Program-made: the position numbers and the translations under genes
Shown: piece after piece, positions 29,460 through 46,712 of the stretch
How positions within the stretch are numbered: the first letter of the stretch is position 1
How the letters are laid out: the number at the start of each line of letters is the position of its first letter
Notes under the pieces: model-generated
Told to the model about the DNA's origin: nothing
The model's input: the letters and a program-made list of their open reading frames with translations, nothing else
Databases searched by the model: none
Origin: Allolobophora icterica
Taxonomy: Eukaryota > Annelida > Clitellata > Crassiclitellata > Lumbricidae
Length of the DNA stretch: 64,000 nt
Assembly (NCBI GenBank): GCA_963556255.1
Contig: OY744610.1
Coordinates: forward strand, 63,616,298-63,680,297
Reading direction: 5' to 3'

Positions 29460-29858
29460 AGTAGATGACAAGTGAGCGTTTTGACGCAGGCTGTACAGAA
29501 GCGATTTGATATATTAGACTGTCTCTACAGAAAAGGGTCCACAGAGGGCCCACAGGATCCACGGACCCTTATCAAAGATCAGTTTCCAAGCAGTGCCTAT
29601 GGCTATCATGGCTAGAAGTCTTTTGAATCGCGATGACAAGTGAGTGGGCTAACGCAGTGCGCTATAGAAGTCCTAGAATACAAAAGACCCTCTCTACGGA
29701 AGCCTTTAACGCAGGCCCAATAGAAGCCTGTTGATATAAAAAGACTGGCTCTGAAGAAGCCTGGCGCTACAGAAGTCCAGGGCTTTTATCACAATTGGCT
29801 ATCAAAAAGGAGTGGAAGATTTTGAACGCAGGCTCAATAGAAGGAAGCCTGGGCAGGC
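29460..29858 (+). repeat. Left terminal inverted repeat, 399 bp
   Basis: Inverse of 46314-46712 with one difference seen by eye: G at 29764 against the A-equivalent at 46408. No indels. Similarity stops after GCCTGGGCAGGC. Near identity suggests a recent insertion or continued correction between the ends. Confidence 0.95.
29483..29844 (+). repeat. Subterminal repeats inside the left TIR
   Basis: Five imperfect copies of a ~20-bp motif, consensus RACGCAGGCYNNAYAGAAG, at about 29483, 29651, 29708, 29759 and 29824, with mirror copies in the right TIR. The outermost 38 bp (GATGACAAGTGAG, then ACGCAG, then AGAAG, from 29464) is repeated 168 bp further in, at 29632. Such iterated ends are plausible binding sites for integrase or the replication machinery (inference). 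Confidence 0.7.
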
Positions 29859-29919
29859 AACTGTTTTCTCGCGAACAATCGAAAACCCCAATCCTTTAAT
29901 CAACCAGTCAATCGAAATT

Positions 29920-29929
29920 TATATAAATA
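29920..29929 (+). promoter_or_regulatory. TATA-like element before the first Polinton gene
   Basis: TATATAAATA about 58 bp upstream of the ATG at 29988 and just inside the left TIR. Position and sequence suit a TATA box; no other promoter motif is claimed. Confidence 0.4.
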
Positions 29930-29987
29930 CAAATAAAGTATTTTTCAATTTAAATAAATGAATACGTTGTGGTATACATAAATCATA

Positions 29988-30263
29988 ATGTTAGGACAAA
30001 ACTTTTGCATTTGGCTCGGTATAGGTAAAACATCCCTCTGCTGTCGCAGGTGCATTGGGGAGTACTGTTTCAAACATTTGGCACGACTGCGAAACGGTTG
30101 TGGGACAAAACCATGTGCCAAATGTGGAAGGGGTATAAAAACACACGTGGGTGAGTGTATGAAATGTGGTTATTTCGCTAAATATTTGAGAGCTCGACGA
30201 GGTGGGTTAGTTCGCGAATTTAATAAAGAATGGAAACGTCTATCATCTATTTCAATAGACTAG
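29988..30263 (+). CDS. Small Cys-rich protein, probable zinc binder (Polinton)
   Basis: 91 residues. Cysteines are spaced as zinc ligands: C19-x2-C22, C27-x2-H30, then C43-x2-C46 and C57-x2-C60, with a basic C-terminal third (YLRARRGG). No signal peptide or membrane segment. It is the leftmost gene, just inside the TIR and upstream of the polymerase in the same direction, so a role early in the cycle (regulation or replication) is possible but not shown. I do not recognise a named family. AATAAA-like sequence follows the stop (30266-30272). Confidence 0.7.
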   Translation: MLGQNFCIWLGIGKTSLCCRRCIGEYCFKHLARLRNGCGTKPCAKCGRGIKTHVGECMKCGYFAKYLRARRGGLVREFNKEWKRLSSISID

Positions 30264-30349
30264 ATAATAAAAAATTTCTATTTAAAGAAATGATAAACTT
30301 ATTATATTAGAGAAAAGTTTGCCACAGTAATATAAACTAATTTATTACT

Positions 30350-31669
30350 ATGGCATTGTCTACGAATGAAAAAATTGAACAATTGTTGGGTGAGTTTACT
30401 GGTCCCCCCGCTCTTCGAGCTGTTCTACAGAATATCTTAGACGAACCTATCCCAGATGCGGTCAAAAGGCGCTTACTACAGCCACTGCTTCCAAGGCCAA
30501 TTCCTCCAGTGCGCAAGCATAGAGGGGCAAAACGTAAGGCCCTTCTGGCACAATTCGACCCACTCCTAATTAAGAAGGATAGAGGTGGACCACCACCCTT
30601 TCTAGTACACAAAGAGCTCGCCAATCAGCTTCTGAGAGACTTTCGTGCAGAATTACCTCTTAACCACAGGCTGGAAGGAGATGCGTTGGCTTTCTTGAGT
30701 GCAATGGAGCACAACATTGAGTCGCAGCTAAACGAAGAGCTCTTAAAAAATGGCGGATTCAAATACTCTCAAGTGCTGACTGTTGATTTAGAAAAGTTGG
30801 CACCGACCCTTGACAATGTGTATGATGGCAACGCAGCTCCTGGTACTATTACCAACACGGCTTACTTTCGAAGCAAAGCAGTACCAGTTACCAATGCGGG
30901 TAAAATCCAAGGGACTATACGGAAGGCCAAGGCCGAAATACTAAAACTCCTCGAGGATTACACCAATGAAGGGTCGGGGTGGAGGGTGAGGCGGGTCGTG
31001 GCGCTAGACCTCAGTTTTGCAAGATATAAGCCTTTCCGAGGCAAGAGCTATTTCCCAACACCGAAGTATATCCCCTATCATTCAGTCGTTAATGTGAAGA
31101 ATGAAGACAACCGTTGCTTCGAGTGGGCAATATTATCGGCAATGTACCCAGCAGAACACGACCCTCAACGCCCAACTAAGTATCGTGCCCACCTCCACGA
31201 GCTAAACTTTGACGATATAGAATTTCCAGTGAAGGTTACAGATATCGGTAAGTTCGAGCGTCAGAACCCTATGGTGTCCGTATCGGTCTTCGGATGGAAC
31301 GAAGGGTTATATCCAATCTGTGTATCAAAGCAGACCAATAGAGACTACAATATCGATCTTCTACTGTTGGCCAGTGGCGTAAATGAAAATTTGCATTTAC
31401 AGAATCACCACTACGTCTGGATTAAAGACCTTGGCCGAATTCTTCGTCAAAATAGTAAACACAACAACAGGAAACATCCATGTCGTCGCTGCCTACACAT
31501 ATTCTGTAGACAAGACTTGCTGGATGCTCATATCAAGGATTGTCAGGGCATCAGTAAGAAGCCTCAGCGGATTGAGATGCCTAAGGAGGATGAAAACACC
31601 CTCAAATTTCAGAGCCATCGCAAACAGATGCAAACCCCATATATCATATACGCAGACTTTGAGCGTTGA
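30350..31669 (+). CDS. Protein-primed DNA polymerase B, N-terminal part (frame broken)
   Basis: 439 residues coding for the N-terminal part of the Polinton family-B polymerase, which copies the element from protein-primed ends. Visible: the conserved NRCFEWAILSAMYP block (near residue 260), a C2HC-type zinc motif (CRRCLHIF...DAHIKDC) at about 378-398, and the start of the exonuclease domain, YIIYADFE (Exo I), right at the end. The frame then meets a stop at 31667-31669, while the rest of the protein continues in the frame one base back from about 31663. No slippery heptamer is evident, so this looks like a one-base loss or an assembly error rather than programmed frameshifting. Confidence 0.88.
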   Translation: MALSTNEKIEQLLGEFTGPPALRAVLQNILDEPIPDAVKRRLLQPLLPRPIPPVRKHRGAKRKALLAQFDPLLIKKDRGGPPPFLVHKELANQLLRDFRAELPLNHRLEGDALAFLSAMEHNIESQLNEELLKNGGFKYSQVLTVDLEKLAPTLDNVYDGNAAPGTITNTAYFRSKAVPVTNAGKIQGTIRKAKAEILKLLEDYTNEGSGWRVRRVVALDLSFARYKPFRGKSYFPTPKYIPYHSVVNVKNEDNRCFEWAILSAMYPAEHDPQRPTKYRAHLHELNFDDIEFPVKVTDIGKFERQNPMVSVSVFGWNEGLYPICVSKQTNRDYNIDLLLLASGVNENLHLQNHHYVWIKDLGRILRQNSKHNNRKHPCRRCLHIFCRQDLLDAHIKDCQGISKKPQRIEMPKEDENTLKFQSHRKQMQTPYIIYADFER

Positions 31670-34110
31670 ACGTGCCAGTCCTAAATGCGGCCATGAATCC
31701 CAACGAGAGCAACACCAGACAGATAGCTGAGCAGAAACCGTGTAGCTTCTGTTATATAGTGGTCCGATACGATGGCCGCACGAAGAAACCAGTTTTATAC
31801 CGCGGAGAAAACGCCGTGGAGGAGTTCCTACAACAACTACAAGGCGAGCTAGCCTCTATAAAACAAAGGCTGGCCACCCCAGCTAAGATGGTTATGTCAG
31901 CGGCCGATCGTCAATCATTCCGCGAGGCTATCGAATGTCACATCTGCGGAGATGCGCTCGAAGCGGACAGAGTTCGTGACCACTGCCACATTACCGGTAA
32001 GTACCGAGGTGCCGCTCACAGCGAGTGTAACTTAAAACTTAGAATATATCCCGATAAGTGCAAGGTACCGGTGGTCTTCCACAATCTGCGAGGTTACGAC
32101 AGTCATCTCATCATGCAAGCGATCGGAAGTTGTGAGGCCGCACAGGATGAGGAAACTGAAATTAACTGCATCCCAAACAATATGGAGAAATACATGACAT
32201 TCAACATAGGACAACTACAGTTCATCGACAGCCTCCAGTTTCTAAACAGTTCGTTGGATAAATTATCAGGAAATCTGTCGCTTGAGGATCTGAAAGTCAC
32301 AACTGCGTATATAAACGAAAACTTTGTTCATAACGAACGGTTAAAATTAGATCTGTTGAGGCGAAAGGGCGTTTATTGTTACGAATACATCCACGATTAC
32401 CACCGCTTCGAAGAAGACCGACTTCCACCCAAAGAAGCGTTCTACAGCAGGCTCTCACGAGAGAACATTTCTGATGAGGATTATCAACACGCCCAACGAG
32501 TATGGAATGAATTCGACTGTAAAACGCTGGGCGACTATCACGACCTGTATCTCCGCACGGATGTACTTCTACTCGCAGATGTCTTCGAGACCTTCAGAAA
32601 CACATCGATGAAACACTACAGTTTAGATCCGGCAAATTACTTCAGCCTGCCAGGAATGGCCTGGGACGCTTTGTTGAAAAAGACAAAAATCGAGCTCGAA
32701 CTTTTAACCGATATAGATATGCATTTGTTCGTAGAGAAAGGTCTCCGAGGTGGAATCTCGATGGTATCTAAGCGCTTCGCAAAAGCCAACAACCCGCAAT
32801 GTCCAGATCATGATACTACGAAGCCAGAAAACTGGATCATGTATCTCGACGCTAATAACCTGTACGGCTGGGCGATGCAACAGCCATTACCAGTTGGAGG
32901 ATTTAGCTGGGCAAGTCCAACTCTCGATGAAGTGTTGGAAACTGCGGACGACGCGCCTGAAGGCTTCCTTCTCGAAGTCGATCTTGAGTATCCGGAGCAC
33001 CTCCACGATGCTCACAACGACTATCCCCTAGCACCGGAGACCCTGACTGTCCAAGAGGAGTGGTTGAGTGACTATCAGAATGTGCTTATGAACGAGTTGG
33101 GAAGCAAGTTCACAAAGCATGTGAAGTTAGTACCAAGCCTACGACCTAAGGAGCAGTATGTGGTCCATTATAGAAATCTCAAACTCTACCACTCGTTAGG
33201 CCTACGAGTTGCTAAAATCCATCGTGCCATTAAATTCAGGCAGGAGGCATGGATGGCTCCATACATTGAGATGAATACGAAATTGAGAGCGAAGGCAACG
33301 TCGGAATTTGAGAAGGATTTCTTCAAACTGGCTAATAATGCGGTCTTTGGAAAGACCATGGAAAATCTTAGAAAAAGAATTAGGGTCAACCTGGTACCAT
33401 CCTCAAAAGTTGATAAACTTCGTAAACTAATTGCCGACCCGGCCTACATATCACACAAAATCTTCAACGACCAACTCGCCGCGATTCACAGTTTGAAGAA
33501 CAAGCTCAAGTTAAACAGACCTGTATATGTCGGCCAGGCTGTCCTCGACCTCAGCAAGCATCTGATGTACGACTTCTGGTACAACGATGTGAAAAACGAG
33601 TACGGCAACAATGCTCAACTCTTATACACAGACACTGACAGCCTGTTATTTCAGGTGGAAACTCCGAACGCCTATGCCGATATGTGGAACAAAAAACACC
33701 TATACGACTTTAGTGAGTTTCCTAGAGACAACCCGTACTACGACGTCGAGAACAAGAAAGTCGTGGGCAAGTTCAAGGATGAATGTAACGGAGTGGCCAT
33801 CGCCGAATTCGTAGGATTGCGTCCGAAGATGTACTCGATCTTAAAATCGGGCGGTTCAGAGATCAGGAAAGCAAAAGGCGTTCAGAGAGCGGTTGTGAAG
33901 AAGGATCTGCACCACGAGCTATACAAGGAATGCCTGTTCGAACGAGAGGAAATGCGGCACACACAAGTCGTGATTAGAAGCCACGACCACCAGATCGGAG
34001 TGTACGAGCAGAATAAGATCAGCCTCTCTCCATTAGACACAAAAAAGTGGATAGGGGCCGATGGGATAACAACGCTGGCATACGGGCACTACAAAATCAA
34101 CGACGGTTGA
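31666..34110 (+). CDS. Protein-primed DNA polymerase B, exonuclease/polymerase part
   Basis: 814 codons continuing the polymerase in another frame. The frame opens without an ATG (first ATG at 31693). Motifs by residue from 31666: an endonuclease-VII-like zinc motif C91-x2-C94...DHCH105-108...H118-x2-C121; Exo II FHNLRGYDSHLI 138-149; Exo III YLRTDVLLLADVF 295-307; palm motif A YLDANNLYGWAM 393-404; motif B KLANNAVFGKTMEN 554-567; motif C YTDTDS 654-659; and PKMYS near 720. All catalytic motifs are intact here. The 3' end overlaps the convergent integrase gene by 14 bp. Confidence 0.92.
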   Translation: MNVPVLNAAMNPNESNTRQIAEQKPCSFCYIVVRYDGRTKKPVLYRGENAVEEFLQQLQGELASIKQRLATPAKMVMSAADRQSFREAIECHICGDALEADRVRDHCHITGKYRGAAHSECNLKLRIYPDKCKVPVVFHNLRGYDSHLIMQAIGSCEAAQDEETEINCIPNNMEKYMTFNIGQLQFIDSLQFLNSSLDKLSGNLSLEDLKVTTAYINENFVHNERLKLDLLRRKGVYCYEYIHDYHRFEEDRLPPKEAFYSRLSRENISDEDYQHAQRVWNEFDCKTLGDYHDLYLRTDVLLLADVFETFRNTSMKHYSLDPANYFSLPGMAWDALLKKTKIELELLTDIDMHLFVEKGLRGGISMVSKRFAKANNPQCPDHDTTKPENWIMYLDANNLYGWAMQQPLPVGGFSWASPTLDEVLETADDAPEGFLLEVDLEYPEHLHDAHNDYPLAPETLTVQEEWLSDYQNVLMNELGSKFTKHVKLVPSLRPKEQYVVHYRNLKLYHSLGLRVAKIHRAIKFRQEAWMAPYIEMNTKLRAKATSEFEKDFFKLANNAVFGKTMENLRKRIRVNLVPSSKVDKLRKLIADPAYISHKIFNDQLAAIHSLKNKLKLNRPVYVGQAVLDLSKHLMYDFWYNDVKNEYGNNAQLLYTDTDSLLFQVETPNAYADMWNKKHLYDFSEFPRDNPYYDVENKKVVGKFKDECNGVAIAEFVGLRPKMYSILKSGGSEIRKAKGVQRAVVKKDLHHELYKECLFEREEMRHTQVVIRSHDHQIGVYEQNKISLSPLDTKKWIGADGITTLAYGHYKINDG

Positions 34111-35110
34111 GTATTCTATCGGGGGGTAACTCAGTGCCCATAGGCACTAGAAGCAGCTCCTCACGGACAAAACCGCGGCCAGGCCCATCAACTAGATGGT
34201 ATAAAGCCGGTTGCTCAGCCTGCCGAACAACATCCAAAATAGCGTGGATTGTGAGCGACCAGTTTGGGTCGGTGGCGCGTTTGCTTCCACCCTCAAGCTC
34301 GCCGGGAGCGTACAAATATCGGACGAGAACGTCGTGCCCGAGAACAGGCTCATCCAAGCCCCACAAACGAGTTTTCATTTGTGAATGAGAGGGCTTCTGT
34401 GTCACTTTAGCAGCTTTCATCGCTTCAACCGGCTTCATGTCGAGCAAGCGCGTCGGCTCATCGTTCAGTGCAGCTACAACTTCGGGCAATCGTCGAACCC
34501 ATTCCACTGACCGTTCGGATGACCCCCTTGCATCCAGGAGCAATTCCTGAGCGTATTGAGCACCGAAGAGTCGCTCAGCTAGAGTACGGTTAAAGCGTTC
34601 AACGATGCCCTGTTGGCGATGATTTCCGGCCTGTCCGCGTCTTACAAGAACGTCGTGCTTCGCCAGCAACGGTGTAAAATCACCCATAAATTCGCGTCCA
34701 GGATCGACCTGAAAGAGACGAGGCCAAGTTAATGGGCCCCTCTTATAGATCCGGCTTAAAGCGGCGGCGACTTCGGTCGCACTTTTGTTGATCAACGGTT
34801 CAGCTTCTTTGTATCGTGAGGCAACATCAACAACAGTGAGAGCGTATTTATAAGTCTTTCGACCTACTTTATCGTGAGGTAAAAACAAGAGATCGGCTTG
34901 GTGTACCGCGTTTGGTCGATTTTCATCGAACTTTGGACGCGGTATGCGGCGTGGAACGGGAAGATAAATCTGCCACACAGCTTGTTTCTTCAACCAATCA
35001 CGAGCCTCCGCCTCGGAAACTTTGGCGGCTGAGGCTAGTTTCTTCACCGCAGCCTTACCTCGCCAGTAACCTTTAGGGCTGTAATAGACGGCTGAAAGGT
35101 GCTTAGACAT
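34097..35110 (-). CDS. Polinton integrase (retroviral-type, DDE)
   Basis: 337 residues from the Met at 35110, the start that matches the conserved Polinton integrase beginning (YYSPKGYWRG). The frame is open up to an ATG at 35164, which would add 18 hydrophobic residues and overlap the upstream gene's stop as ATGA. Catalytic triad: D73 (HQADLLFLPHD), D136 (FQVDPGREF) and E171 (GIVERFNRTLAERL), the last two about 35 residues apart as in retroviral integrases. An N-terminal helical zinc-independent region precedes it, and a C-terminal SH3-like part (near YHLVDGPGRGFVREELLLVP) follows. It joins element ends to host DNA. It converges on the polymerase gene with a 14-bp tail overlap. Intact. Confidence 0.93.
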   Translation of the reverse strand: MSKHLSAVYYSPKGYWRGKAAVKKLASAAKVSEAEARDWLKKQAVWQIYLPVPRRIPRPKFDENRPNAVHQADLLFLPHDKVGRKTYKYALTVVDVASRYKEAEPLINKSATEVAAALSRIYKRGPLTWPRLFQVDPGREFMGDFTPLLAKHDVLVRRGQAGNHRQQGIVERFNRTLAERLFGAQYAQELLLDARGSSERSVEWVRRLPEVVAALNDEPTRLLDMKPVEAMKAAKVTQKPSHSQMKTRLWGLDEPVLGHDVLVRYLYAPGELEGGSKRATDPNWSLTIHAILDVVRQAEQPALYHLVDGPGRGFVREELLLVPMGTELPPDRILNRR

Positions 35111-35160
35111 TTCAGTAAAACTATATATTACAAACAGGTAAACACATACACAAATGATTT

Positions 35161-35748
35161 TCATTTGCGTCGCCGTCCAACACCCATCCCCAGCCTCGAC
35201 TTCGCTGTCATAATGGCCGATACGAGCCGGGCATCTTTCTTTTCATAATCCGGAGTTTCATCGGTGAGTGCGATCTTCGACGCGGCTGCAGCGAGGATGT
35301 CATCTGCGTGGTTACGCCCTGGGGTATCTTTATGAACTGCGTAAGCCACATCATGGTGGAGGCACGCACGGTCGAGCTGATTAACACCGTGATAGCGCTG
35401 TGACAGCCGTTTATCGAGTTTTGTGAATGGTCCACAGTAAGAGTACTTTCCTGTATTCTGAAAAGAACCTCCCGGATTATCTTCCGAAGACATACCGGAT
35501 GGTAGGCTCATATGCATCTCAGGCAGAGGCAGAATATTAAGAGCGCTATTCAGTAGAGAGCCTCCATAAGTCTCACGAGACTTATGCTTTCGCACTTTAG
35601 AAGGCAAAATTTGGCTCTTCTTTGCACCGCAGACGGCACAGGTTCCCTTCTTGGCTGGCCGACCGTTTCGTAACTCGACGATTGTTTCATTTGAAGTCTC
35701 AGTATGTTTCTTACATCGTAGGCAATACATTGTGTTCGTTGAATACAA
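35161..35748 (-). CDS. Phospholipase A2-like protein with N-terminal zinc ribbon
   Basis: 195 residues from 35748 (a second Met at residue 7, 35730, may be the real start: MYCLRCKK). C9-x2-C12 and C37-x2-C40 form a zinc-ribbon-like head. Residues about 101-160 look like a secreted-type PLA2 fold as in parvovirus VP1: calcium-loop YCGPFT at 104-109, LD at 111-112, catalytic dyad H132-D133 in ACLHHDVAYA, and HADD at 147-150. The C-terminus is basic (GRRRK). In parvoviruses such a domain breaches endosomal membranes; by analogy this could serve entry (inference). It lies upstream of the integrase on the same strand, its stop overlapping the longer integrase start, and diverges from the ATPase gene. 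Confidence 0.82.
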   Translation of the reverse strand: MYSTNTMYCLRCKKHTETSNETIVELRNGRPAKKGTCAVCGAKKSQILPSKVRKHKSRETYGGSLLNSALNILPLPEMHMSLPSGMSSEDNPGGSFQNTGKYSYCGPFTKLDKRLSQRYHGVNQLDRACLHHDVAYAVHKDTPGRNHADDILAAAASKIALTDETPDYEKKDARLVSAIMTAKSRLGMGVGRRRK

Positions 35749-37609: not shown

Positions 37610-38401
37610 ATGGAACGCTCGGAGAAACTGCTCGAAGAAATTAGAGAACTTTTACAGCCTAAGGAAAATTTTAGTATAGTTGTTTCCTCAGATACTACAG
37701 GGTGGACCACGGCTTTCTCACCACCGCTGTACCTGGATCCAAAAAGACGCTTTGAGCTTGCTTTGGTCAATCTTGAAACTTATAATTCGATTCCCAACAT
37801 CGATAGTACAAATAACAAGTTCGTCTACAGCACCGACAATGGTGTGACGTGGAAGACGATCATTTTGCCCGACGGAAGCTACGAGATCGCACAGATTAAT
37901 GATGAAATCGGTAGGCAGTTAGAAAAGCAAAATTCTCCGACGGGTGTGGCACCACTCGGCTTTAATTCTCCTATTACCATAGGAGCTAACGCATCTACCC
38001 TACGCGCCTTCATAAAAATTACGAATGCCCTATATAAGGTAAATATGGCTCAATCTACCATCAGGCAAATGCTCGGTTTTAACCCTCAGAGGCTTGGTAG
38101 TGGTTATAAAGAGGGAGAAAATCCAGTCGATATTCTCCGCGTGGACACAATCCTGGTAAATTGTGACATTATCTCTGGATCGTATCGAAATGGTGGCCAG
38201 CTGCCAGTAATCTATAGTTTTTTCCCGGATGTGTCGCCCGGCTACAAGGTAATCGAGTCTCCGAAAAATCTGGTGTACCTACCAGTTGCACCGGCTGGTA
38301 ACGTACAGGGCATTCGTGTGTGGCTGACCGACCAGAATGGTGAACAATTAAACCTCCGCGGTGAGACAGTAACTATAAGGTTTCACATCCGCAGTGCGTA
38401 A
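37610..38401 (+). CDS. Minor capsid protein (penton-like, single jelly-roll)
   Basis: 263 residues, beta-rich. Characteristic Polinton minor-capsid features: an N-terminal strand region with PPLYLDPKRRFELALVNLET, then YNSIPNI, the strand LPDGSYEIAQINDEI, and the C-terminal GEQLNLRGETVTIRFHI. In Polintons and virophages this protein forms the pentameric vertices. Located two genes before the major capsid protein. The 3' end overlaps the next frame by 8 bp. Intact. Confidence 0.87.
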   Translation: MERSEKLLEEIRELLQPKENFSIVVSSDTTGWTTAFSPPLYLDPKRRFELALVNLETYNSIPNIDSTNNKFVYSTDNGVTWKTIILPDGSYEIAQINDEIGRQLEKQNSPTGVAPLGFNSPITIGANASTLRAFIKITNALYKVNMAQSTIRQMLGFNPQRLGSGYKEGENPVDILRVDTILVNCDIISGSYRNGGQLPVIYSFFPDVSPGYKVIESPKNLVYLPVAPAGNVQGIRVWLTDQNGEQLNLRGETVTIRFHIRSA

Positions 38402-38882
38402 ATGTTCACACTTAAATATTCTAATGTTGGTTCTTGGAATTAAAAAGCGGCGTCGTGTCGTGGGTGGCGGACTTTTCGACTGGATACCCAAAATCGCGGG
38501 TTTCCTTGGCCGTGCAGGCTCCTTCATTTCGGCGAATAGAGGCACAATCACAAACGTTGCCAAGGCGGTTGGTAATGTCGCGAAAGCCGGCGCCACAACA
38601 GCATCTGCCGTCAGGCAAATTGTTGATGCCGTGAAAGCGAGACGCGCTGCAGCCGTAAATGAAGCTCATTTACGAAATGAAAATTCAGCTGCCGCGCCCG
38701 TTGTCCCCGCACCTTTGGAGAAGGCGCTCAGCGACAAGAGCATCGAATACTTAAAACAACTGGCTGTGAGTCCACCACCCGTTGTTCCGACAATGGCTGA
38801 CATAAACAGCCGCATTGCTGGATCCGGTTTCAAGACTATAAAGCCGAGTCGTTGTGGTAGGGGTCTGTTTCTTGCAAAATGA
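38394..38882 (+). CDS. Adenovirus pX/pVI-like small virion protein
   Basis: 162 residues from 38394; an internal Met at 38424 (MLVLGIKKRRRVVGGG) is an alternative start. A basic patch (KKRRR) is followed by Gly-rich and amphipathic helical sequence (LFDWIPKIAGFLGRAGSFIS), Ala-rich helices and a Pro-rich spacer. The C-terminal segment IAGSG matches the adenain consensus [MIL]xGx-G. The composition resembles adenovirus core and membrane-lytic precursors. It starts inside the end of the minor capsid gene. Assignment by composition and location, not by firm homology. Confidence 0.65.
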   Translation: MRKCSHLNILMLVLGIKKRRRVVGGGLFDWIPKIAGFLGRAGSFISANRGTITNVAKAVGNVAKAGATTASAVRQIVDAVKARRAAAVNEAHLRNENSAAAPVVPAPLEKALSDKSIEYLKQLAVSPPPVVPTMADINSRIAGSGFKTIKPSRCGRGLFLAK

Positions 38883-38993: not shown

Positions 38994-40289
38994 ATGGCGG
39001 CATTTGACGTGCCGAGTGAAACGTTGGACATCGCTTCGGCGGTGCCCGATGACAATAGCATCGAATCGTTTGAATACCGCGAGTATGAGTCACAAAATCC
39101 CGCGGCTATCAACAATGGCCAGGCCATACAGATAGACATCCAGAACCAAGACATTTTCACGCAGCCTTCTAAGAGTTACCTTCTTGTGGAGGGCAGGATT
39201 ACATCAACTGGCGCGGCTTACATCGCAGACTCGTTGGTGTCATTCATCAACAATGCTATCCCGTACATGTTTTCTCAAATTCGATACCTGGCTAACAATA
39301 CCGAGATAGAGAATGTCATGTCACCTGGGCAAGCCACGACGATGAAAGGCATGCTGGTATACGGCGATGATTTTTCCAAAGGCGAAGGTTTAAACATGTG
39401 TTGGCAGAAGGACACGAGTGCGGCGGCGGCGACCGCGAATATCGGCTTCGAGGCCCGTCGACTGATGATCATTGGAAAACCCGTCCCTATTGGCACATTT
39501 TCATTCATCGTTCCCTTAAGACATCTATTCGGCTTTTGCGATGATTACCACAAAGTCGTATACGGGATTAAACACTCCTTACTGCTGAGCCGGCAGGGAG
39601 ATGCAGACGCGATCTTCAAGGAAGCCGCTGCGGCCAATGGCCAGATCGCGCTGACTAAACTCTCCTGGTTCATGCCGCATATAATACCCGCTTTGGAGTA
39701 TAAAAGCATGCTAATGAAGCAGATTGAAGCCAAGGTTAAGGTACCTGTAGCATTCCGCGCCATGCAATGCGACAACATTGCGGTGCCACGAGCGACGACT
39801 TTTTCCTGGCGTTTGAGTGTTAAGTCGGGCACGGAAAAGCCACGCTGGATTCTTGTTGCTTTTCAAACTGGAAAGAATGCGCATCAAGGCCAGAATCCGG
39901 CACTGTTTGACCATGTGCAGGTTCGCAACATTTTCGCTATGCTCAACAGCGATCGATACCCGGTGGTTGACATGAATCTTGACTTCACCAAGAGGACAAC
40001 CTCTCGCGCTTACAAGGCCCTACGTGACTTCAAGGAAGAATATTGCGGCATAGACGCGCGTGAATCGTCATGCCAACCGACACCAATCGAATTTGTAGAT
40101 TTGTTTCCGATCTTCGTCCTGGACGTGCGCAGGCAATCTGAACGACTAAAAACCTCTGTACAGGACATACAAATCAAGGTGGACTTTAACGAAGGGGTAC
40201 CAAATAATACGACGGCATATGCCGTCCTGATCAGCGACCGACTCCTGAATTTTGAATCGGATGGCAGCAAATTCAACGTCGTCTACTAG
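38994..40289 (+). CDS. Major capsid protein (double jelly-roll)
   Basis: 431 residues. The pattern is that of Polinton/adintovirus major capsid proteins: N-terminal acidic segment, LEVEGR-like strand (SYLLVEGRIT), FINNAIPYMFSQIRYLANNTEIE, PIGTFSFIVPLRHLFGFCDDYHKVVYGIKHSLLLSR, and the C-terminal jelly-roll with PRWILVAFQTGK and LNSDRYPVVDMNLDF, ending in FVLDVRRQSERLK. Family members form the trimeric hexons of icosahedral shells. Length is typical and no lesion is seen. Flanked by the two pX-like genes. Confidence 0.93.
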   Translation: MAAFDVPSETLDIASAVPDDNSIESFEYREYESQNPAAINNGQAIQIDIQNQDIFTQPSKSYLLVEGRITSTGAAYIADSLVSFINNAIPYMFSQIRYLANNTEIENVMSPGQATTMKGMLVYGDDFSKGEGLNMCWQKDTSAAAATANIGFEARRLMIIGKPVPIGTFSFIVPLRHLFGFCDDYHKVVYGIKHSLLLSRQGDADAIFKEAAAANGQIALTKLSWFMPHIIPALEYKSMLMKQIEAKVKVPVAFRAMQCDNIAVPRATTFSWRLSVKSGTEKPRWILVAFQTGKNAHQGQNPALFDHVQVRNIFAMLNSDRYPVVDMNLDFTKRTTSRAYKALRDFKEEYCGIDARESSCQPTPIEFVDLFPIFVLDVRRQSERLKTSVQDIQIKVDFNEGVPNNTTAYAVLISDRLLNFESDGSKFNVVY

Positions 40290-40346: not shown

Positions 40347-40853
40347 ATGAAAACTGAATACGTTGCGTTCGGCCTTTCACTGACCGACGGGCAAAAGCAA
40401 ACATTGGCTAAAGCTGCGCGTGCCGGCACTGGTGCCACGATCCGACTCGCTCATGGCCAGCTTCGCGGAGACGACAAGCTCGCGCTGACAAAAGTTCAAG
40501 CCGCCCGAATCGTGAAGAAGATTTCGGAAGGCGTTGGCATGGAGCTGAGATTCACCAAAACGCAACTGAAAAAGATGACAAAATCGGGCGGATTTCTTCC
40601 ACTACTGGCTCTCCTCCCGCTGCTTTTTGGTGGGTTATCCGCGGCGGGTGCCGTGGCTGGTGGGACCGCTGGGGTAGTAAAGGCTGTGCAGAGCAAACAG
40701 GCCAGCGACGCTGCACTGGCGGAGGCGGCGCGTCACAATCGCGAACTCGAGGCCCAGGTCCGCGGGACTGGTTTATATCTCGGGCGGGAGACTCATGGTG
40801 GCTGTTGCCCAATGTGTAAAGGATCGGGTCTCTACATCGGACAAAAAAACTAA
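40347..40853 (+). CDS. pX/pVI-like protein with hydrophobic Gly-Leu segment
   Basis: 168 residues. A basic N-terminal half (KTQLKKMTKSGGF) leads to a strongly hydrophobic segment (LPLLALLPLLFGGLSAAGAV) at about 82-101, a Gly/Ala helix and a polar tail with two GLY[LI]G-type boxes and CCPMC. LFGGL fits the adenain consensus [MIL]xGG-x. This layout recurs directly after the capsid gene in Polintons and resembles adenovirus pX/pVI, so a capsid-bound, membrane-active peptide is likely. Its stop is at 40851-40853, where the coding similarity of the next gene already begins. Confidence 0.72.
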   Translation: MKTEYVAFGLSLTDGQKQTLAKAARAGTGATIRLAHGQLRGDDKLALTKVQAARIVKKISEGVGMELRFTKTQLKKMTKSGGFLPLLALLPLLFGGLSAAGAVAGGTAGVVKAVQSKQASDAALAEAARHNRELEAQVRGTGLYLGRETHGGCCPMCKGSGLYIGQKN

Positions 40854-41224: not shown

Positions 41225-41251
41225 ACTTCCGTCACCTTTTTGTATATAAAA

Positions 41252-41308: not shown

Positions 41309-41343
41309 GCGCCGCTGGGCTCGTCCACAAAGCGGGTGATACC

Positions 41344-43407
41344 ATGATGGGAATTCTGTCGGCTGGAGGTTTTCGGCTGACAAACGTGGGAACGCCCACG
41401 ATGGAAACAGACGCCGCGACAAAGGCTTATGCAGACATCATAGATCAGGACAACTTACAAATCACCGGTGGAACGATGTCTGGCGTTCTAAAAATGGGTG
41501 GTCACAAAGTTACTGGGCTGCCCACAGACACAGCAACGTCCGATAGCGACGCTGCGAGTTGGGCACAAGTGGTACGATACGCGGACCAGAAGGCGACCGC
41601 GGCCGAAAATCATGCAGACCAAAAACTTATCGATGCCAGGCAGTACACGGACGAGAAGAATGCGGGGCTGAGAGATTCTGTTAGGCGGTATGCAGATGAC
41701 AAGGACCTTATTGTTAAAAGTTATGTTAACGAGCAAGATGTTATCGTCAGGAATGCGTGCGTGCTCAAATCAGGCGGCGTAATGACTGGAAGTTTAGTTA
41801 TGGGTGGCCACCGAGTTACTGGGCTCCCAACAGAAATTTCAGGATCCGATAGCGACGCAGCGAGTTGGAAACAAGTGTCAACAGCGGTCGCTGGCGCTCT
41901 AGTAAAACTCGATAGAGTACCAACGGAGTCGTTGCATGTGGTGAATAAGCGGTATGTAGATTCCCGCGACGCTTCTTACAGACAGTACGTGGATGAGAAG
42001 GTCACCACCGCTAGAAGATATGTGGACGAGAAGCATGCTATCGTAAGAGGCGGGCATGTGCTCAAAAGCGGCGATTCTATGACTGGTGATTTGACCATGG
42101 GTGGCAAAAGAGTGACTGGGCTGCCAACAGAAATTCCAGGATCCGATAGCGACGCCGCGAGTTTGAAACAGGTGACGCAGCTGATCAGTAACGCCACTAA
42201 GAATAATGATACGGCGCCGGCTGGACCAAAGTACTTGACTAACAAGCGGTATGTGGACGCGAAAAACGCTGAGATTGGAGCTTCAGTTAGACTCTATGCG
42301 GACCAGAAAGCTGAAGCTGCTAAGACGTACGCCAACGAGCAAGATGTTATCGTTAGGAGCGCATGCGTGCTTAAAGCTGGCGACGCAATGACGGGTGATT
42401 TAACCATGGGTGGTAATAGAGTTACTGGGCTCCCTACGAGCGCAGCAACGTCCGAAAGCGACGCGTCGAGTATGGCACAAGTATCGAAGCTGATCGCCGA
42501 CAACATGACAAAGAGTGATAGAGTACCAACAGAACCGTTGCATGTGACAAATAAACGATACGTTGACGTGAAAAACGCTGAAATTGGAGCTTCCGTTAGA
42601 CTCTATGCGGACCAGAAAGTTGAAGCTGCTAAGAGGTACGCCAACGAGCAAGATGTTATCGTTAGGAGCGCATGCGTGCTCAAATCCGGCAGTACCATGA
42701 CCGGTGATCTGGCTATGGGTGGCCACCGAGTTACTGGGCTCCCAACAGAAATTCCAGGATCCGATGGCGACGCTGCGAGTTTGAAACAAGTGACGCAGCT
42801 GATCACCAACGCCACTACGAAAAATGATACGCCGCCCTCGGGACCATGGTACCTGACTAACAAGCGGTATGTAGACAGTGAGATAGCTAATGAAAGGCGA
42901 TACGCGACGAGCATCAAGATTCTCAACTACAGCGGCCACATTCCGCCCCTATCCAGAAACGTTTCCGAAACGGGTTTTATTGCCTCAGCCAACGAATCTT
43001 TACCCACTAACCCGCCTCATATGGCATTCAACTCGGGTGTGAGAGGTGAGTGGAAGACGGCGTCCACATCGAGAGCCGATATTGAGATTCGGGTTAGTGG
43101 GACTTGGTTACAGATTGAATGCCCGACGACTGTGCGAGTATGGAAGGTTAGTCTGGCTGGGGGATCTAGTCCTACTGCACCACGTATCACGTCCTGGAAG
43201 ATTTATGGGATTCCCGATAATGAAAATAGATTTGATGGGCTCATCACCTCCAATGTCACTTTGACTAATTCTGCGCAAGAGTTCACCTTCACAACTCAGA
43301 GTTTATACAAAAAATTCAGGCTGATGGTCTTGGCCACCAGCCCACCACAAGCTACTTTTGGAATATCACACTTCCAGATCTATACATATTTTAGACACGG
43401 GGGATAG
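41344..43407 (+). CDS. Fibre-like protein: five-repeat shaft and galactose-binding-like head
   Basis: 687 residues from the first ATG of this frame. The shaft (about 40-520) is built of five ~100-residue repeats, each with a glycine box (MTGDLTMGG.RVTGLP), an SDSDAAS turn and a helical heptad part (NKRYVD, ASVRLYADQK, EQDVIVR), a pattern of trimeric phage and viral fibres. Glycine boxes lie near 41478, 41780, 42079, 42388 and 42697. Residues about 535-687 form a separate beta-rich domain (WLQIECPTTVRVWKVSLAGG, ITSWKIYGIPDN, KKFRLMVLAT, ISHFQIYTYF) resembling F5/8-type C (discoidin) galactose-binding domains. Located after the protease in the virion block. An attachment role is inferred. The 5' end appears frame-broken. 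Confidence 0.8.
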   Translation: MMGILSAGGFRLTNVGTPTMETDAATKAYADIIDQDNLQITGGTMSGVLKMGGHKVTGLPTDTATSDSDAASWAQVVRYADQKATAAENHADQKLIDARQYTDEKNAGLRDSVRRYADDKDLIVKSYVNEQDVIVRNACVLKSGGVMTGSLVMGGHRVTGLPTEISGSDSDAASWKQVSTAVAGALVKLDRVPTESLHVVNKRYVDSRDASYRQYVDEKVTTARRYVDEKHAIVRGGHVLKSGDSMTGDLTMGGKRVTGLPTEIPGSDSDAASLKQVTQLISNATKNNDTAPAGPKYLTNKRYVDAKNAEIGASVRLYADQKAEAAKTYANEQDVIVRSACVLKAGDAMTGDLTMGGNRVTGLPTSAATSESDASSMAQVSKLIADNMTKSDRVPTEPLHVTNKRYVDVKNAEIGASVRLYADQKVEAAKRYANEQDVIVRSACVLKSGSTMTGDLAMGGHRVTGLPTEIPGSDGDAASLKQVTQLITNATTKNDTPPSGPWYLTNKRYVDSEIANERRYATSIKILNYSGHIPPLSRNVSETGFIASANESLPTNPPHMAFNSGVRGEWKTASTSRADIEIRVSGTWLQIECPTTVRVWKVSLAGGSSPTAPRITSWKIYGIPDNENRFDGLITSNVTLTNSAQEFTFTTQSLYKKFRLMVLATSPPQATFGISHFQIYTYFRHGG
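41460..42895 (+). repeat. Five ~300-bp coding repeats in the fibre gene
   Basis: Direct repeats with spacing of about 299-309 bp. Repeats 4 and 5 share long identical DNA stretches (for example GAGCAAGATGTTATCGTTAG), indicating recent expansion or gene conversion within the gene. Confidence 0.85.
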
Positions 43408-43425
43408 TCAGTAGTATAGAAAAAT

Positions 43426-43971
43426 ATGGCTGACACGCACTACAAGATTCGGGGGTATCTCCGTCAACACGGAGAAATAGACATGTGCAAATACAGCATA
43501 GACAGTCTAGGTGATGTGGGCCACTGGGGGTACGACATCCCGAAGCCCACCGCAGAGCTATTGACCGCGGTGCCTCAACAGCACATCGACTTCGTGTCTG
43601 ACGATTACCACAACCGCGATATCTATACGGCGGCCGGAACGGTAACCACGACTGCGTGGCAAACTCTTCCATTGACCGCTGCGCGTTTTCCGTGTATAAC
43701 TTTGCAAACCACCAATCAGGGGGTTTCGTTAGAGGGCGGGTTCTGGAAGCTTACAATGTTTGGTGTTAGTACCGGTGATGCGTCAGTTCGCATTATTACA
43801 GCCGCGGGTAGCATCGATCGTACAGTTGACATTCAAAGTGGACAATTTGATGCATCTAGGGCAATATTCGTTCCAGGACAAACGAGTTTCCGAATTGAAG
43901 GCAAAAAGAGAGGCGTTGAAAGTACTTCATCTATCGACTTAAACGTAACTTTACTAATAGAGCAACTATAA
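43426..43971 (+). CDS. Unassigned Polinton protein, beta-rich
   Basis: 181 residues, 18 bp after the fibre gene and 7 bp before the next. The N-terminal part (about 1-60) is polar with several His/Tyr; from about 70 on, alternating hydrophobic and Thr/Ser-rich strands (TVTTTAWQTLPL, FWKLTMFGVSTGD, SVRIITAAG, TSFRIEGKKRGVES, SIDLNVTLLIEQL) suggest one beta-sandwich. No signal peptide or membrane segment. Position beside the fibre suggests a spike, head or fibre-partner role. Family not recognised. Confidence 0.7.
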   Translation: MADTHYKIRGYLRQHGEIDMCKYSIDSLGDVGHWGYDIPKPTAELLTAVPQQHIDFVSDDYHNRDIYTAAGTVTTTAWQTLPLTAARFPCITLQTTNQGVSLEGGFWKLTMFGVSTGDASVRIITAAGSIDRTVDIQSGQFDASRAIFVPGQTSFRIEGKKRGVESTSSIDLNVTLLIEQL

Positions 43972-43978
43972 AAAAACA

Positions 43979-44584
43979 ATGGCTTTGTATCCAACGCTTA
44001 CGGAGCCGACAATTTCGTCAGACACGAAGTCGCAGACTTTTCGTCTGCAGAAGATTGGTGAAGTAGAAGCATTCCTGAGATCTGAGGCGATAAGTCGGGG
44101 ACAACTATGCAAGAAGTATAAGAGGGTTGTAGATGTGGCTAATGGGGCCTCGGCCGGCCTTGCTATAGTTAGTCTTGGAACTGGGGTGGGTGGGGCAGCT
44201 ATGTTAGCCACTGGTATTGGTTTTATTCCTGGTATTGTTCTAGAGAGTTTGGCCATAGCTACGAGTTTTCTGGATATTATTGGAAATGTTATTAGCCGAT
44301 CGTTTGTTGCTAAAGCTTCAAAACACGACGAAATTTGTATTTTGGCGGAAAGTAAACTAAACACTGTTCATGACCATATTTCTAAGGCGTTGGAAGACAC
44401 GGCTATTAGCGATGAAGAGTATAAGCTTATTCTGGGAGAGGAGGAGAAATATAGAACGATGAAACGTGATATACAAAGCAAGAATGGAAAAAAAGAGTTG
44501 CCGAGTCAAAGCAAGGACCAGATGGTGGCAGAACTAATCAAGAAACTAACAAGCGCTGGGCCTTCTCCGCGAACCTCAAAATAA
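43979..44584 (+). CDS. Unassigned Polinton protein with hydrophobic glycine-zipper hairpin
   Basis: 201 residues. A helical charged N-terminal region (about 20-50) is followed by two hydrophobic stretches rich in small residues (ASAGLAIVSLGTGVGGAA and IVLESLAIATSFLDIIGNVI, about 57-105), then a long charged helix pair (KHDEICILAESKLN, ISDEEYKLILGEEEKYRTM) and a Lys/Ser-rich tail. Such a layout is seen in membrane-inserting or pore-forming proteins and in BH3/apolipoprotein-L-like families, but none is firmly recognised. I have the impression the pattern recurs in invertebrate genomes. Last gene of the rightward block; the AATAAA at 44580-44585 overlaps its stop. Confidence 0.7.
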   Translation: MALYPTLTEPTISSDTKSQTFRLQKIGEVEAFLRSEAISRGQLCKKYKRVVDVANGASAGLAIVSLGTGVGGAAMLATGIGFIPGIVLESLAIATSFLDIIGNVISRSFVAKASKHDEICILAESKLNTVHDHISKALEDTAISDEEYKLILGEEEKYRTMKRDIQSKNGKKELPSQSKDQMVAELIKKLTSAGPSPRTSK

Positions 44585-44585
44585 A
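44580..44585 (+). terminator. Polyadenylation signal overlapping a stop codon
   Basis: AATAAA spans the TAA stop (44582-44584) of the last rightward gene, which fits compact viral-type gene organisation. No downstream GU-rich element was verified. Confidence 0.45.
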
Positions 44586-44705
44586 AGTTTTCATCGTAGG
44601 TGGTTGGAGTAGTGAGTCTGTAATTCCTAGCGCGCCACCGCCGTACGATTAGGAGGGGGTCAACATTTTGCCGACGTTTCGTAGTAGTGTCACATCCATA
44701 TTTAG

Positions 44706-45290
44706 CTTCTAATAATGCGGAAGGCTTATTTTTTCTAATTTACAACGAAATTTACAGGGGGTCCAAATTTGGCAAACGGTCCCGAAGTCATACCACACCC
44801 TCATTAAACCGCAGAATGCTTAATTTTTCTAATTTACAACGAAATTTATGGGGGGTCCAAATTTGGCAAACGGTCCCGAAATGATACCACACCCGCATTT
44901 TACCGCAGAATGCTTAATTTTTCTAATTTATAACGAAATATATGGGGGGTCCAAATTTGGCAAACGGTCCCGAAATGATACCACACCCGCATTTTACCGC
45001 AGAATGCTTAATTTTTCTAATTTATAACGAAATATATGGGGGGTCCAAATTTGGCAACCGGTCCCGAAATGATACCACACCCGCATTTTACCGCAGAATG
45101 CTTAATTTTTCTAATTTATAACGAAATATATGGGGGGTCCAAATTTGGCAACCGGTCCCGAAATGATACCACACCCGCATTATACCGCGGAATGTTTGAT
45201 TTTTTTAAATTTATAACGAAATATATGGGGGGTCCAAATTTGGCAACCGGTCCCGAAATGATACCACACCCGCATTATGCTGCAAAAGGC
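44706..45290 (+). repeat. 94-bp tandem repeat, six copies
   Basis: The landmark TCCAAATTTGG recurs at 44762, 44856, 44950, 45044, 45138 and 45233, giving periods of 94, 94, 94, 94 and 95. Each unit contains GGGGGGTCCAAATTTGGCAA, GGTCCCGAAATGATACCACA and a poly-T stretch. Copies 3-5 are nearly identical. Located between the last gene and the right TIR. Confidence 0.95.
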
Positions 45291-45458
45291 CTATCGAATG
45301 TACTATGTTTAGCCTTTTTCTGTTATGTGCTTTAGTAAATATACACCACAGATAAACGAATGATCTTTCTTGCGCGGTAAACATGCTGTTTAACCCATTT
45401 TCGCGCTGACTGACCTCTTTTTGAAGTGAATATAGGTTTTCCAGGTCGCTTTAAAAAC

Positions 45459-45704
45459 TTATGTTCGTTTGGCAATGACTATAGACAGTGTGCTAAACCA
45501 CATGTTTTTATGATATATAGACAATGCAACAGCCACAAGGTTAACGAGCACAGCAAAAACCACGGTAATTCCATACACGCATTTATCTGAACTGGACTGC
45601 TTAAAAATAGCAGTGGGCTCAAAAGCCAGACGACCTGGCAACACAGTTTCAACCTTTCGGTAAACAGACTCATTCAGGCTATTACTTTGTACATAGCAGT
45701 CCAT
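45459..45704 (-). CDS. Possible small membrane protein (Polinton right end)
   Basis: 81 residues with one hydrophobic segment (VYGITVVFAVLVNLVAVALS) near the C-terminal half. It is the only sizeable frame between the 94-bp repeat and the right TIR together with its neighbour, and runs opposite to the virion block. No family recognised; it may be a non-coding shadow. Confidence 0.3.
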   Translation of the reverse strand: MDCYVQSNSLNESVYRKVETVLPGRLAFEPTAIFKQSSSDKCVYGITVVFAVLVNLVAVALSIYHKNMWFSTLSIVIAKRT

Positions 45705-45897
45705 ATATTGTAGTGCTGCAGACTTTCAAGCAAACGTGGTTAAGCAACGTTTCAAGCAACACGATGATTACACTCGTTTTATTAGGCGGAGCCACCGCAA
45801 CCAGAAACAAGAGAATAAATAACTTGAATACATAACTAGAATAAATAACTAGAACGGGGTGCAATTGAGAGGAAGCTCGAGAGAGAGGCTCTGACAC
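45682..45897 (-). CDS. Possible small hydrophobic protein (Polinton right end)
   Basis: 71 residues, largely hydrophobic (VIYSSYVFKLFILLFLVAVA). It overlaps the next minus-strand frame by 23 bp. The two could be pieces of one spliced or frame-broken membrane protein, or chance frames in AT-rich DNA. Confidence 0.25.
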   Translation of the reverse strand: MSEPLSRASSQLHPVLVIYSSYVFKLFILLFLVAVAPPNKTSVIIVLLETLLNHVCLKVCSTTIYGLLCTK

Positions 45898-46313
45898 AGA
45901 TGATAGTCTTCTGAGCCACTTAAAACCTTGTAATGTTATGTTATGTTATGTTAAATAGAGGTTTATATGTTATTAAACAGAAAGCGGTGCACTGCTTCAT
46001 TATAACGGTTATAAATATATTAATAACCTACTACATATATACAAACATAATACGAGCACTCTACATCTGATTAACGGCATGATCAATGGTTAATAGTTCT
46101 GTTGTGCGCGAGGCCTCATATAGGCTTATAAACACATTCCATGGCTAAAGGCAACGATGAATGGTTGTTACTGACCTAGATTGCGCGAACTAATGCGCGA
46201 GAGACTGTAAACAACAGGTGCGGGATCAGGCAGTGTATAGACTACATCAATTACTTGGCACGCACACTTCCCTTCCCTTTTTAGTTGATGGTGTTATTGA
46301 GCCATTTATCAGC
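45898..46313. other. AT-rich spacer inside the right TIR, no gene seen
   Basis: Contains (TTATG)n at 45933-45953. No coding or repeat structure otherwise. Confidence 0.6.
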
Positions 46314-46712
46314 GCCTGCCCAGGCTTCCTTCTATTGAGCCTGCGTTCAAAATCTTCCACTCCTTTTTGATAGCCAATTGTGATAAAAGCCCTGGACTTC
46401 TGTAGCGTCAGGCTTCTTCAGAGCCAGTCTTTTTATATCAACAGGCTTCTATTGGGCCTGCGTTAAAGGCTTCCGTAGAGAGGGTCTTTTGTATTCTAGG
46501 ACTTCTATAGCGCACTGCGTTAGCCCACTCACTTGTCATCGCGATTCAAAAGACTTCTAGCCATGATAGCCATAGGCACTGCTTGGAAACTGATCTTTGA
46601 TAAGGGTCCGTGGATCCTGTGGGCCCTCTGTGGACCCTTTTCTGTAGAGACAGTCTAATATATCAAATCGCTTCTGTACAGCCTGCGTCAAAACGCTCAC
46701 TTGTCATCTACT
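46314..46712 (-). repeat. Right terminal inverted repeat, 399 bp
   Basis: Inverse of 29460-29858, ending in CTTGTCATCTACT. The inner edge is GCCTGCCCAGGC. Confidence 0.95.

What the first reader, a model, noticed from the sequence alone, without database searches (positions are those of the whole stretch)
29460..46712. Complete adintovirus-like Polinton with almost identical ends
Both 399-bp terminal repeats, all replication and integration genes and a full virion gene block are present in 17.25 kb. One difference between the ends suggests recent insertion. Major capsid, penton-like, packaging ATPase and protease genes mean the element has, or recently had, the parts of a virus.
Basis: partly seen in the sequence, partly recalled or inferred. 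Interest (0 to 1): 0.85.

Follow-up and report, generated by a model that had tools for sequence, protein, structure and literature searches.

The report
Mosaic Polinton virus family, frameshifted protease
This is one young copy of a virus-like jumping element that is present in hundreds of places in an animal genome, whose copies are patchworks of one another and whose capsid-maturing protease seems to be made only when the ribosome slips.

Summary
The element is real: 399-bp inverted ends with one mismatch, a target-site duplication, and Polinton replication, integration and virion genes. This copy is not complete: its polymerase frame is broken, while the frame is open in 14 of 15 other sampled copies.

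A junction probe has 390 exact places in the 1.12-Gb host genome; the 97 best-scoring capsid genes are all full length without stops (97 of 1983 candidates scored). All 16 paired copies have target duplications, 14 of 5 bp and 2 of 6 bp. Copies are strong mosaics, and deep differences are mostly silent. I read this as a recombining replicating population; conversion between inserted copies is the rival.

The new point: the adenain-type protease has no ATG before its conserved N-terminus and overlaps the PX gene in the -1 frame. A slip site, A AAA AAC, sits directly before the PX stop in 16 of 16 copies, with partial support from metagenomic relatives. I infer a Gag-Pro-like PX-protease fusion; no frameshift was measured and no stimulatory fold found. 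New variant of a known kind.

The parts
29455..29459 (.). left copy of 5-bp target-site duplication AAGGA
29460..29858 (+). left terminal inverted repeat, 399 bp, starts AGTAGA
29988..30263 (+). ORF of 91 aa, cysteine-rich, unknown; one of the most swapped modules (0 to 26% nt difference between copies)
   Evidence: weak zinc-ribbon match only, E 0.046
30350..31669 (+). polymerase B, N-terminal part (frame broken after this in this copy)
31693..34110 (+). polymerase B, C-terminal part, DNA_pol_B_2 E 1e-23
34097..35164 (-). rve-type integrase, 355 aa, E 2.7e-10
35161..35730 (-). DUF5679 + phospholipase A2-like protein, 189 aa
35769..36455 (+). packaging ATPase (Pox_A32 type, E 2.7e-8), 228 aa
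36496..37599 (+). ORF of 367 aa, unknown
37610..38401 (+). candidate minor capsid (penton) gene, 263 aa; identity inferred from position and a weak DUF5901 match
38424..38882 (+). ORF of 152 aa, unknown
38994..40289 (+). double-jelly-roll major capsid protein, 431 aa, E 9e-55
40347..40853 (+). PX: Adeno_PX-like core/minor protein, 168 aa (Pfam match below cut-off, E 0.003)
40844..40850 (+). slip heptamer A AAA AAC in the PX frame, directly before the PX stop codon
40820..41224 (+). adenain-type protease frame, open from 40820, no ATG before 40919, -1 relative to PX
41344..43407 (+). fibre-like protein, 687 aa: five repeats of about 100 aa that look like phage tail-fibre repeats (recalled; PDB tail-fibre match only E 0.051) and a weak discoidin-like (F5/8C) C-terminus
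43426..43971 (+). ORF of 181 aa, unknown
43979..44584 (+). ORF of 201 aa, unknown
44720..45278 (.). 94-bp tandem repeat, 5.9 copies
46314..46712 (-). right terminal inverted repeat, 399 bp, ends TCTACT
46713..46717 (.). right copy of 5-bp target-site duplication AAGGA

Best explanation
A member of a Polinton/Maverick (adintovirus-like) virus-transposon family that occupies hundreds of places in this animal genome; the 16 copies sampled by their ends inserted recently. SHOWN: ends, target duplications, gene set, number of junction places, mosaicism, excess of silent changes at depth, and the overlap of PX and protease with a canonical slip site. INFERRED: (1) protein-primed replication from the inverted repeats by PolB and insertion by the rve integrase, making mostly 5-bp duplications; (2) packaging by the ATPase into a capsid of the jelly-roll protein, with a fibre for attachment; (3) recombination between different types while several genomes replicate in one cell, which made the mosaics; (4) a fraction of ribosomes translating PX slip back one base at A AAA AAC, pass the PX stop and make a PX-protease fusion, so that PX carries a small fixed share of protease into the particle, as Gag carries Gag-Pro in retroviruses. 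The window copy itself is a dead end for replication on its own because its polymerase frame is broken.
For: Ends and TSD in 16 of 16 paired copies, 14 of 5 bp, 2 of 6 bp. 390 places with the PX-protease junction. 97 of 97 scored capsid genes open over 431 aa (97 of 1983 candidates were scored, best first). Polymerase open full length in 14 of 15 other copies. pN/pS between copies 0.027 ATPase, 0.060 capsid, 0.097 polymerase C part, 0.155 integrase, 0.214 protease. PHI: 0 of 1000 permutations reach the observed value in each of three segments; minimum recombination events 8, 77 and 35. Frameshift: protease frame opens at 40820, first ATG 40919 lies inside the conserved motif; the 31-nt overlap holds A AAA AAC; 16 of 16 copies keep it and 97 of the 100 places listed of 390, my count. 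20 of 64 PX relatives end in KN against 0 of 240 capsid and protease hits, at varying distance from the preceding motif. In 2 of 4 PX/protease pairs that share source and contig length the two reading frames together force A AAA AAC or A AAA AAT before the PX stop. 15 of 29 protease relatives with enough upstream sequence, among them 15 of the first 17 in order of score, carry KK at the matching place (at least three of the 29 were placed wrongly by the crude motif). The protease frame folds as adenovirus protease (pLDDT 89.4; best match E 2.6e-7), and residues 11-33, upstream of that ATG, are confidently folded.
Against: No downstream stimulatory fold beyond chance (z -0.46 for 80 nt, -1.11 for 140 nt). 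A canonical slip heptamer in a 31-nt overlap has about a 3% chance by itself (15 in 4673 codons of this element). One of the four pairs gave A AAA AAG with only 3 consistent codons, and one could not be tested. Of 120 protease relatives, 92 reach the conserved start region and 86 of these begin with M as called: many relatives, including close ones that carry KK, do have a start codon in the protease frame upstream of it, so in them an internal start within PX is possible; only the host family here was seen to lack one. A conserved C-terminus alone is not proof: the consensus of the capsid relatives also has a conserved end. Within the near-identical cluster (4 to 7 copies by gene) the virion genes show no significant excess of silent changes (ratio 0.55, p 0.10), so selection on the virion in the latest burst is not shown. 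No RNA, protein or particle data were available.
Confidence: 0.68

Rival explanations
1. The mosaics arose after insertion, by gene conversion between copies already in the chromosomes, and the family spreads only as a transposon inside cells.
For: Hundreds of similar places exist, so conversion has many donors. Two of 16 copies have ends of two different types. Virion genes in the near-identical cluster show no significant selection.
Against: Divergence of up to 26% between modules whose frames stay open needs lineages that were kept functional. Capsid pN/pS is 0.060 and ATPase 0.027, while the ends within a copy are almost identical (0 differences in 12 of 16), so most divergence predates these insertions.
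Confidence: 0.3
2. The protease is not made by ribosomal slipping but by slippage of RNA polymerase on the A7 run, by splicing, or by an internal start (here only the ATG 40919; in many relatives a start codon further upstream inside PX).
For: The run is seven A long and copies with longer and shorter runs exist (2 of 100 places listed). No stimulatory fold was found. Gene callers start 16 of 120 relatives at or after the internal ATG position, and 86 of the 92 that reach further begin with M.
Against: In this family the internal ATG would remove a helix and a strand that are modelled with high confidence and are conserved in relatives. The KN ending right before the stop in 20 of 64 PX relatives fits a slip site in translation; transcript slippage would also fit in part.
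Confidence: 0.28
3. A set of fossils: the family is old and dead, and open frames are a result of looking only at the best-scoring copies.
For: This copy is broken; scored hits are the best of a longer list (97 of 1983, 65 of 1723), and the fetched copies were chosen by end identity of 99% or more.
Against: 97 of 97 capsid and 61 of 65 fibre genes without stops; ends identical within 12 of 16 copies.
Confidence: 0.08

Closest known systems
Vertebrate Mavericks (PMC8097293: results part 1, section 13 and search passages read)
   Same: 12.7-24.6 kb, inverted ends of a few hundred bp, PolB, ATPase, integrase, capsid, protease, purifying selection, several intact copies per genome (up to 38 reported)
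   Different: Here target duplications are mostly 5 bp (14 of 16) against 6 bp reported; more places (390 junction places, not all shown to be whole copies); mosaicism measured; protease in the -1 frame of PX; fibre-like gene
Adintoviruses (PMC11071296: section 16 and search passages read)
   Same: PolB, rve integrase, adenovirus-like capsid and adenain; [quoted passage not shown]
   Different: Here the partner of the protease is PX, not hexon or penton; slip site supported by 16 copies and in part by relatives; integrase chromodomain not detected
Retroviral Gag-Pro frameshifting (recalled; A AAA AAC as the MMTV gag-pro site is recalled, no call)
   Same: Same heptamer class just before the stop of a structural gene, protease in the -1 frame
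   Different: A DNA-virus type element with adenain-type cysteine protease; no relation by descent claimed
Adenovirus protease, adenain (PDB 1avp, 4piq)
   Same: Profile match E 1.3e-6 and fold match E 2.6e-7
   Different: Shorter, lacks its own upstream ATG; adenovirus uses a separate pVI peptide as cofactor (recalled)

Membership tests
Polinton/Maverick | long terminal inverted repeats | tested here: met
   399 bp, one mismatch
Polinton/Maverick | 6-bp target-site duplication, as reported for intact vertebrate Mavericks (PMC8097293) | tested here: inconclusive
   16 of 16 copies have a duplication, 14 of 5 bp and 2 of 6 bp. A range of 5-6 bp for Mavericks is recalled from the early literature, not checked here
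Polinton/Maverick | type B DNA polymerase of the protein-primed kind | tested here: met
   DNA_pol_B_2 E 1e-23; protein priming itself is inferred; broken in this copy
Polinton/Maverick | rve-family integrase | tested here: met
   E 2.7e-10
Polinton/Maverick | double-jelly-roll capsid and packaging ATPase | tested here: met
   E 9e-55 and 2.7e-8
Polinton/Maverick | adenovirus-like cysteine protease | tested here: met
   no Pfam match
Polinton/Maverick | single-jelly-roll penton | tested here: inconclusive
   weak DUF5901 match, fold prediction failed
Adintovirus | PolB with N-terminal OTU-like domain | tested here: inconclusive
   no OTU match in the N part with E up to 1; not folded
Adintovirus | integrase with C-terminal chromodomain | tested here: inconclusive
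   only rve models found with E up to 10; a diverged chromodomain could be missed
Adintovirus | hexon recognisable by BLASTP against adintovirus references | not tested
   no reference sequence was in hand
-1 programmed frameshifting | in-frame X XXY YYZ heptamer in the overlap of two frames | tested here: met
   A AAA AAC at 40844-40850
-1 programmed frameshifting | downstream stem-loop or pseudoknot (usual, not always present) | tested here: inconclusive
   no nested fold better than shuffles; pseudoknots were not tested
-1 programmed frameshifting | fusion product observed | not testable with these tools
   needs reporter or protein data

The most novel reading that the evidence does not exclude
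A currently or very recently transmitting, freely recombining DNA virus of an animal has left hundreds of proviruses, many of them intact, in its genome, and this virus lineage makes its maturation protease only as a PX-protease fusion through -1 ribosomal frameshifting, a retrovirus-like dosage trick in an adenovirus-related lineage; the polymerase N-part travels with its own type of terminal repeat while virion genes are shuffled.
Probability: 0.42. Interest if true: 0.82.

Novelty: new variant of a known kind. Interest (0 to 1): 0.62.

Why it matters
Whether Polintons are transposons or viruses has stayed open; young, intact copies in number are seldom at hand. A genome with hundreds of similar places, whose sampled copies are young mosaics of diverged but open modules, lets one ask where the recombination took place and which genes are under selection. 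The PX-protease overlap gives a simple testable prediction: capsid protease dosage is set by a ribosomal slip, as in retroviruses.

Tried and rejected
IMG/VR scans with the capsid and with a 35-sequence capsid alignment found no relative (the tool says that records near the window's own genome may be left out). One GTDB scan found a single 4.1-kb contig binned as a Balneolales bacterium (L097, capsid 43% identical); its gene order differs and it does not bear on the PX-protease overlap. PDB searches with the capsid gave nothing. The penton fold prediction failed. No paralogous empty site was found: the joined flanks of the window match only the two flanks themselves and three partial places nearby. 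The host species was not identified: the three protein searches went to capsid, protease and PX, and four requests for a mitochondrial marker gene did not complete. A census of terminal-repeat ends over the genome did not complete, nor the one integrase search. Idea rejected: that the polymerase frame break is itself a programmed frameshift; it is absent at that place from 15 of 15 other sampled copies. Idea tempered: that polymerase-N diversity is low in the whole family; the probe has 178 exact places against 390 for the junction, and the sampled copies were chosen by end type. In one search an all-against-all comparison of PX and protease relatives also gave 22 fitting combinations, all with A AAA AAC or A AAA AAT; most of these mix different contigs and they are not counted. 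Searches for print on frameshifting and Polintons. Only the passages and section 16 of PMC11071296 were read for it; PMC12567637 also holds both terms and was not read. Further searches of print. Papers: PMC8097293 (results part 1, section 13, passages), PMC11071296 (section 16, passages), PMC10294476 and PMC4028283 (passages); others seen only as listings. My notebook gives 98 of 101 for the slip site; a recount of the rows gives 97 of 100, used here.
Full report
What is there. The two arms 29460-29858 and 46314-46712 are 399 bp and differ at one position. The flanks carry AAGGA on both sides. Between them I take fifteen ORFs of 91 to 805 aa as genes or gene parts, the polymerase counted as two (which lists further ORFs, mostly antisense to these). 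Pfam names the polymerase (E 1e-23), the rve integrase (2.7e-10), a DUF5679 plus phospholipase A2-like protein, the packaging ATPase (2.7e-8) and the double-jelly-roll capsid (9e-55). The fibre-like protein has five repeats about 100 aa long. That they resemble phage tail-fibre repeats is recalled; the PDB match to a tail fibre is only E 0.051. Its C-terminal part matches a phage tail family (E 7.3e-5) and, below the cut-off, a discoidin-like domain.

This copy is not complete. The polymerase lies in two frames, 439 and 805 aa. In 15 other copies sampled gene by gene the polymerase is open over its full length in 14; the integrase in 14; the phospholipase-like gene in 13; the ATPase, the 367-aa ORF and the penton candidate in 15; the capsid in 14. 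The breaks fall in two of the 15 copies. The 152-aa ORF ran off the fetched pieces, the fibre and the two last ORFs were not fetched as such, and the PX comparison was split in two copies, so these are not part of the counts.

A large family with young members. The host genome is held as G000, 1.118 Gb in 328 contigs. The end repeat gave 40 scored matches, the best of 469 candidates, all 99 to 100% identical. They make 16 pairs (the window included) and 8 singles. All 16 pairs have a duplication at the target, 14 of 5 bp and 2 of 6 bp, at different sites. Within a copy the ends differ at 0 positions in 12 of 16; the other four have 1, 1, 3 and 6, and 6 of these 11 differences fall on three positions that mark an end subtype. 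Leaving those out gives 5 in 6384 aligned sites, or some 40,000 to 400,000 years at assumed rates of 1e-8 to 1e-9 per site and year (my arithmetic; rates recalled, host unknown). These copies were chosen for similarity of their ends, so the age is not that of the whole family. The capsid protein gave 97 scored places of 1983 candidates, 97 of 97 over 431 aa, 99% identical or more, with no stop. The fibre gave 65 of 1723, all 95% or more, 61 of 65 without a stop. A pattern across the PX-protease junction has 390 exact places and none for its reversed control; how many of these are whole copies is not known.

Mosaics. Between copies the genes differ by very unequal amounts: polymerase N-part up to 0.3%, integrase up to 6%, capsid up to 3.9%, 367-aa ORF up to 12%, PX up to 14%, 91-aa ORF up to 26% (maximum over pairs). 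The pattern changes from copy to copy: one copy is 0.10% from another in the integrase and 8 to 23% away in penton candidate, PX and the 91-aa ORF. A PHI test gave 0 of 1000 permutations at or below the observed value in each of three segments, with at least 8, 77 and 35 recombination events (one copy with a large deletion was left out of two segments). pN/pS over all pairs: ATPase 0.027, capsid 0.060, polymerase C-part 0.097, phospholipase-like 0.127, integrase 0.155, protease 0.214, penton candidate 0.217, 367-aa ORF 0.254, PX 0.259, 91-aa ORF 0.276, polymerase N-part 0.79 on very few changes (partial genes dropped, hence 15 of 16 copies for polymerase C-part, integrase, phospholipase and capsid; one phospholipase copy with a stop was kept). 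In the near-identical cluster (4 to 7 copies by gene) seven virion and accessory genes have 22 amino-acid and 12 silent changes, ratio 0.55, p 0.10, and the polymerase 15 and 14, ratio 0.29, p 0.001. So selection on virion genes is clear for the deep divergence and not shown for the last burst. I read this as a recombining population of functional genomes from which copies were inserted; conversion between inserted copies is the main rival.

Ends and polymerase. The 16 copies chosen by their ends all carry nearly the same polymerase N-part, while a 45-base probe of it has only 178 places in the genome against 390 for the PX-protease junction. The 91-aa ORF between them is of a very different type in 3 of 16. 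This suggests that end type and polymerase type travel together; the two are only about a kilobase apart, so linkage alone may explain part of it.

The protease. Its frame opens at 40820, and the first ATG, 40919, lies inside the motif FRGVFM. A profile of 40 sequences finds adenovirus protease (E 1.3e-6) and African swine fever virus S273R (2.9e-6) in the PDB. The predicted model (mean pLDDT 89.4) matches adenovirus protease best (E 2.6e-7), and the residues between the slip site and the ATG form a helix and a strand with high confidence. The frame overlaps PX by 31 nt in the -1 direction, and the last three PX codons and the stop read CAA AAA AAC TAA. The heptamer and its near flank are unchanged in 16 of 16 copies although the surroundings vary and two copies have a 3-base insertion nearby. 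Of the 100 places listed of 390, 97 keep the heptamer (my count); as the sampled copies are young this is weak support. Canonical heptamers occur in frame 15 times in 4673 codons of this element, so about 3% chance for the overlap.

Relatives. Of 64 PX relatives 20 end in KN, none of 240 control proteins does; the distance from the preceding GLYL motif varies (GKKN, SKN, GSKN, RPQKN and others), which points to the stop, not the motif, as the anchor. Of 29 protease relatives with at least seven residues upstream of the LSN-type motif, 15 have KK there, among them 15 of the first 17 in order of score; at least three of the 29 were placed wrongly by the crude motif. For four PX/protease pairs with the same source and contig length I asked which codons fit both frames: two give A AAA AAC or A AAA AAT followed by a stop over 13 codons, one gives A AAA AAG over 3 codons, one cannot be tested because the protease was called from the internal ATG. 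Against the reading: of the 92 of 120 protease relatives that reach the conserved start region, 86 begin with M as called. Many of them, also close ones with KK, thus have a start codon in the protease frame within PX, so an internal start is possible there. More distant relatives lack KK, so the arrangement seems limited to one clade. No stimulatory fold was found.

What is known. Vertebrate Mavericks with several intact copies, inverted ends and purifying selection are in print (PMC8097293). A preprint on animal viruses proposes -1 slipping for some adintovirus pentons and potential hexon-adenain fusions (PMC11071296, section 16). The PX-protease case and its support across copies and relatives were not seen in the searches named under Tried and rejected, which show listings and some passages only. 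I therefore call the element a new variant of a known kind.

Noticed in passing
window 591-5375, minus strand: Uninterrupted ORF of 1594 aa related to SAMD9 (PDB SAMD9 E 2.5e-72; SAM domain), with a His-Gly-rich tail; suggests an animal host. That SAMD9 is an antiviral factor is recalled.
   Followed up: partly
window 12613-13419, minus strand: ORF with a CARD domain (E 1.7e-11), possibly a second immune-type gene near the element.
   Followed up: no
window 15642-17145: 21-bp tandem repeat with 71.7 copies and strong GC skew.
   Followed up: no
window 44720-45278: 94-bp tandem repeat, 5.9 copies, inside the element; may explain part of the length differences between copies (16.7 to 17.9 kb by the places).
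   Followed up: no
G000:C2:31064152 and G000:C1:103368138: Two copies have left and right ends of different subtypes, not expected if the ends are always copied from each other.
   Followed up: partly
G000:C19:19516762-19540995: One copy spans 24.2 kb between its ends, about 6.4 kb more than most others; where the extra DNA lies and what it is was not worked out.
   Followed up: no
window 29988-30263: The small ORF beside the left end exists in types 25% apart although the end repeat and the polymerase N-part on either side are nearly invariant in the 16 sampled copies.
   Followed up: partly
L097: A 4.1-kb contig binned as a Balneolales bacterium encodes a related capsid (43%) followed by a polymerase N-part; probably a binning error of a eukaryotic virus.
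   Followed up: partly
protein hits P0002-P0005: Metagenome contigs of up to 10.8 kb encode capsids 78 to 82% identical to this one; whether they are free viruses or host DNA could not be told.
   Followed up: no
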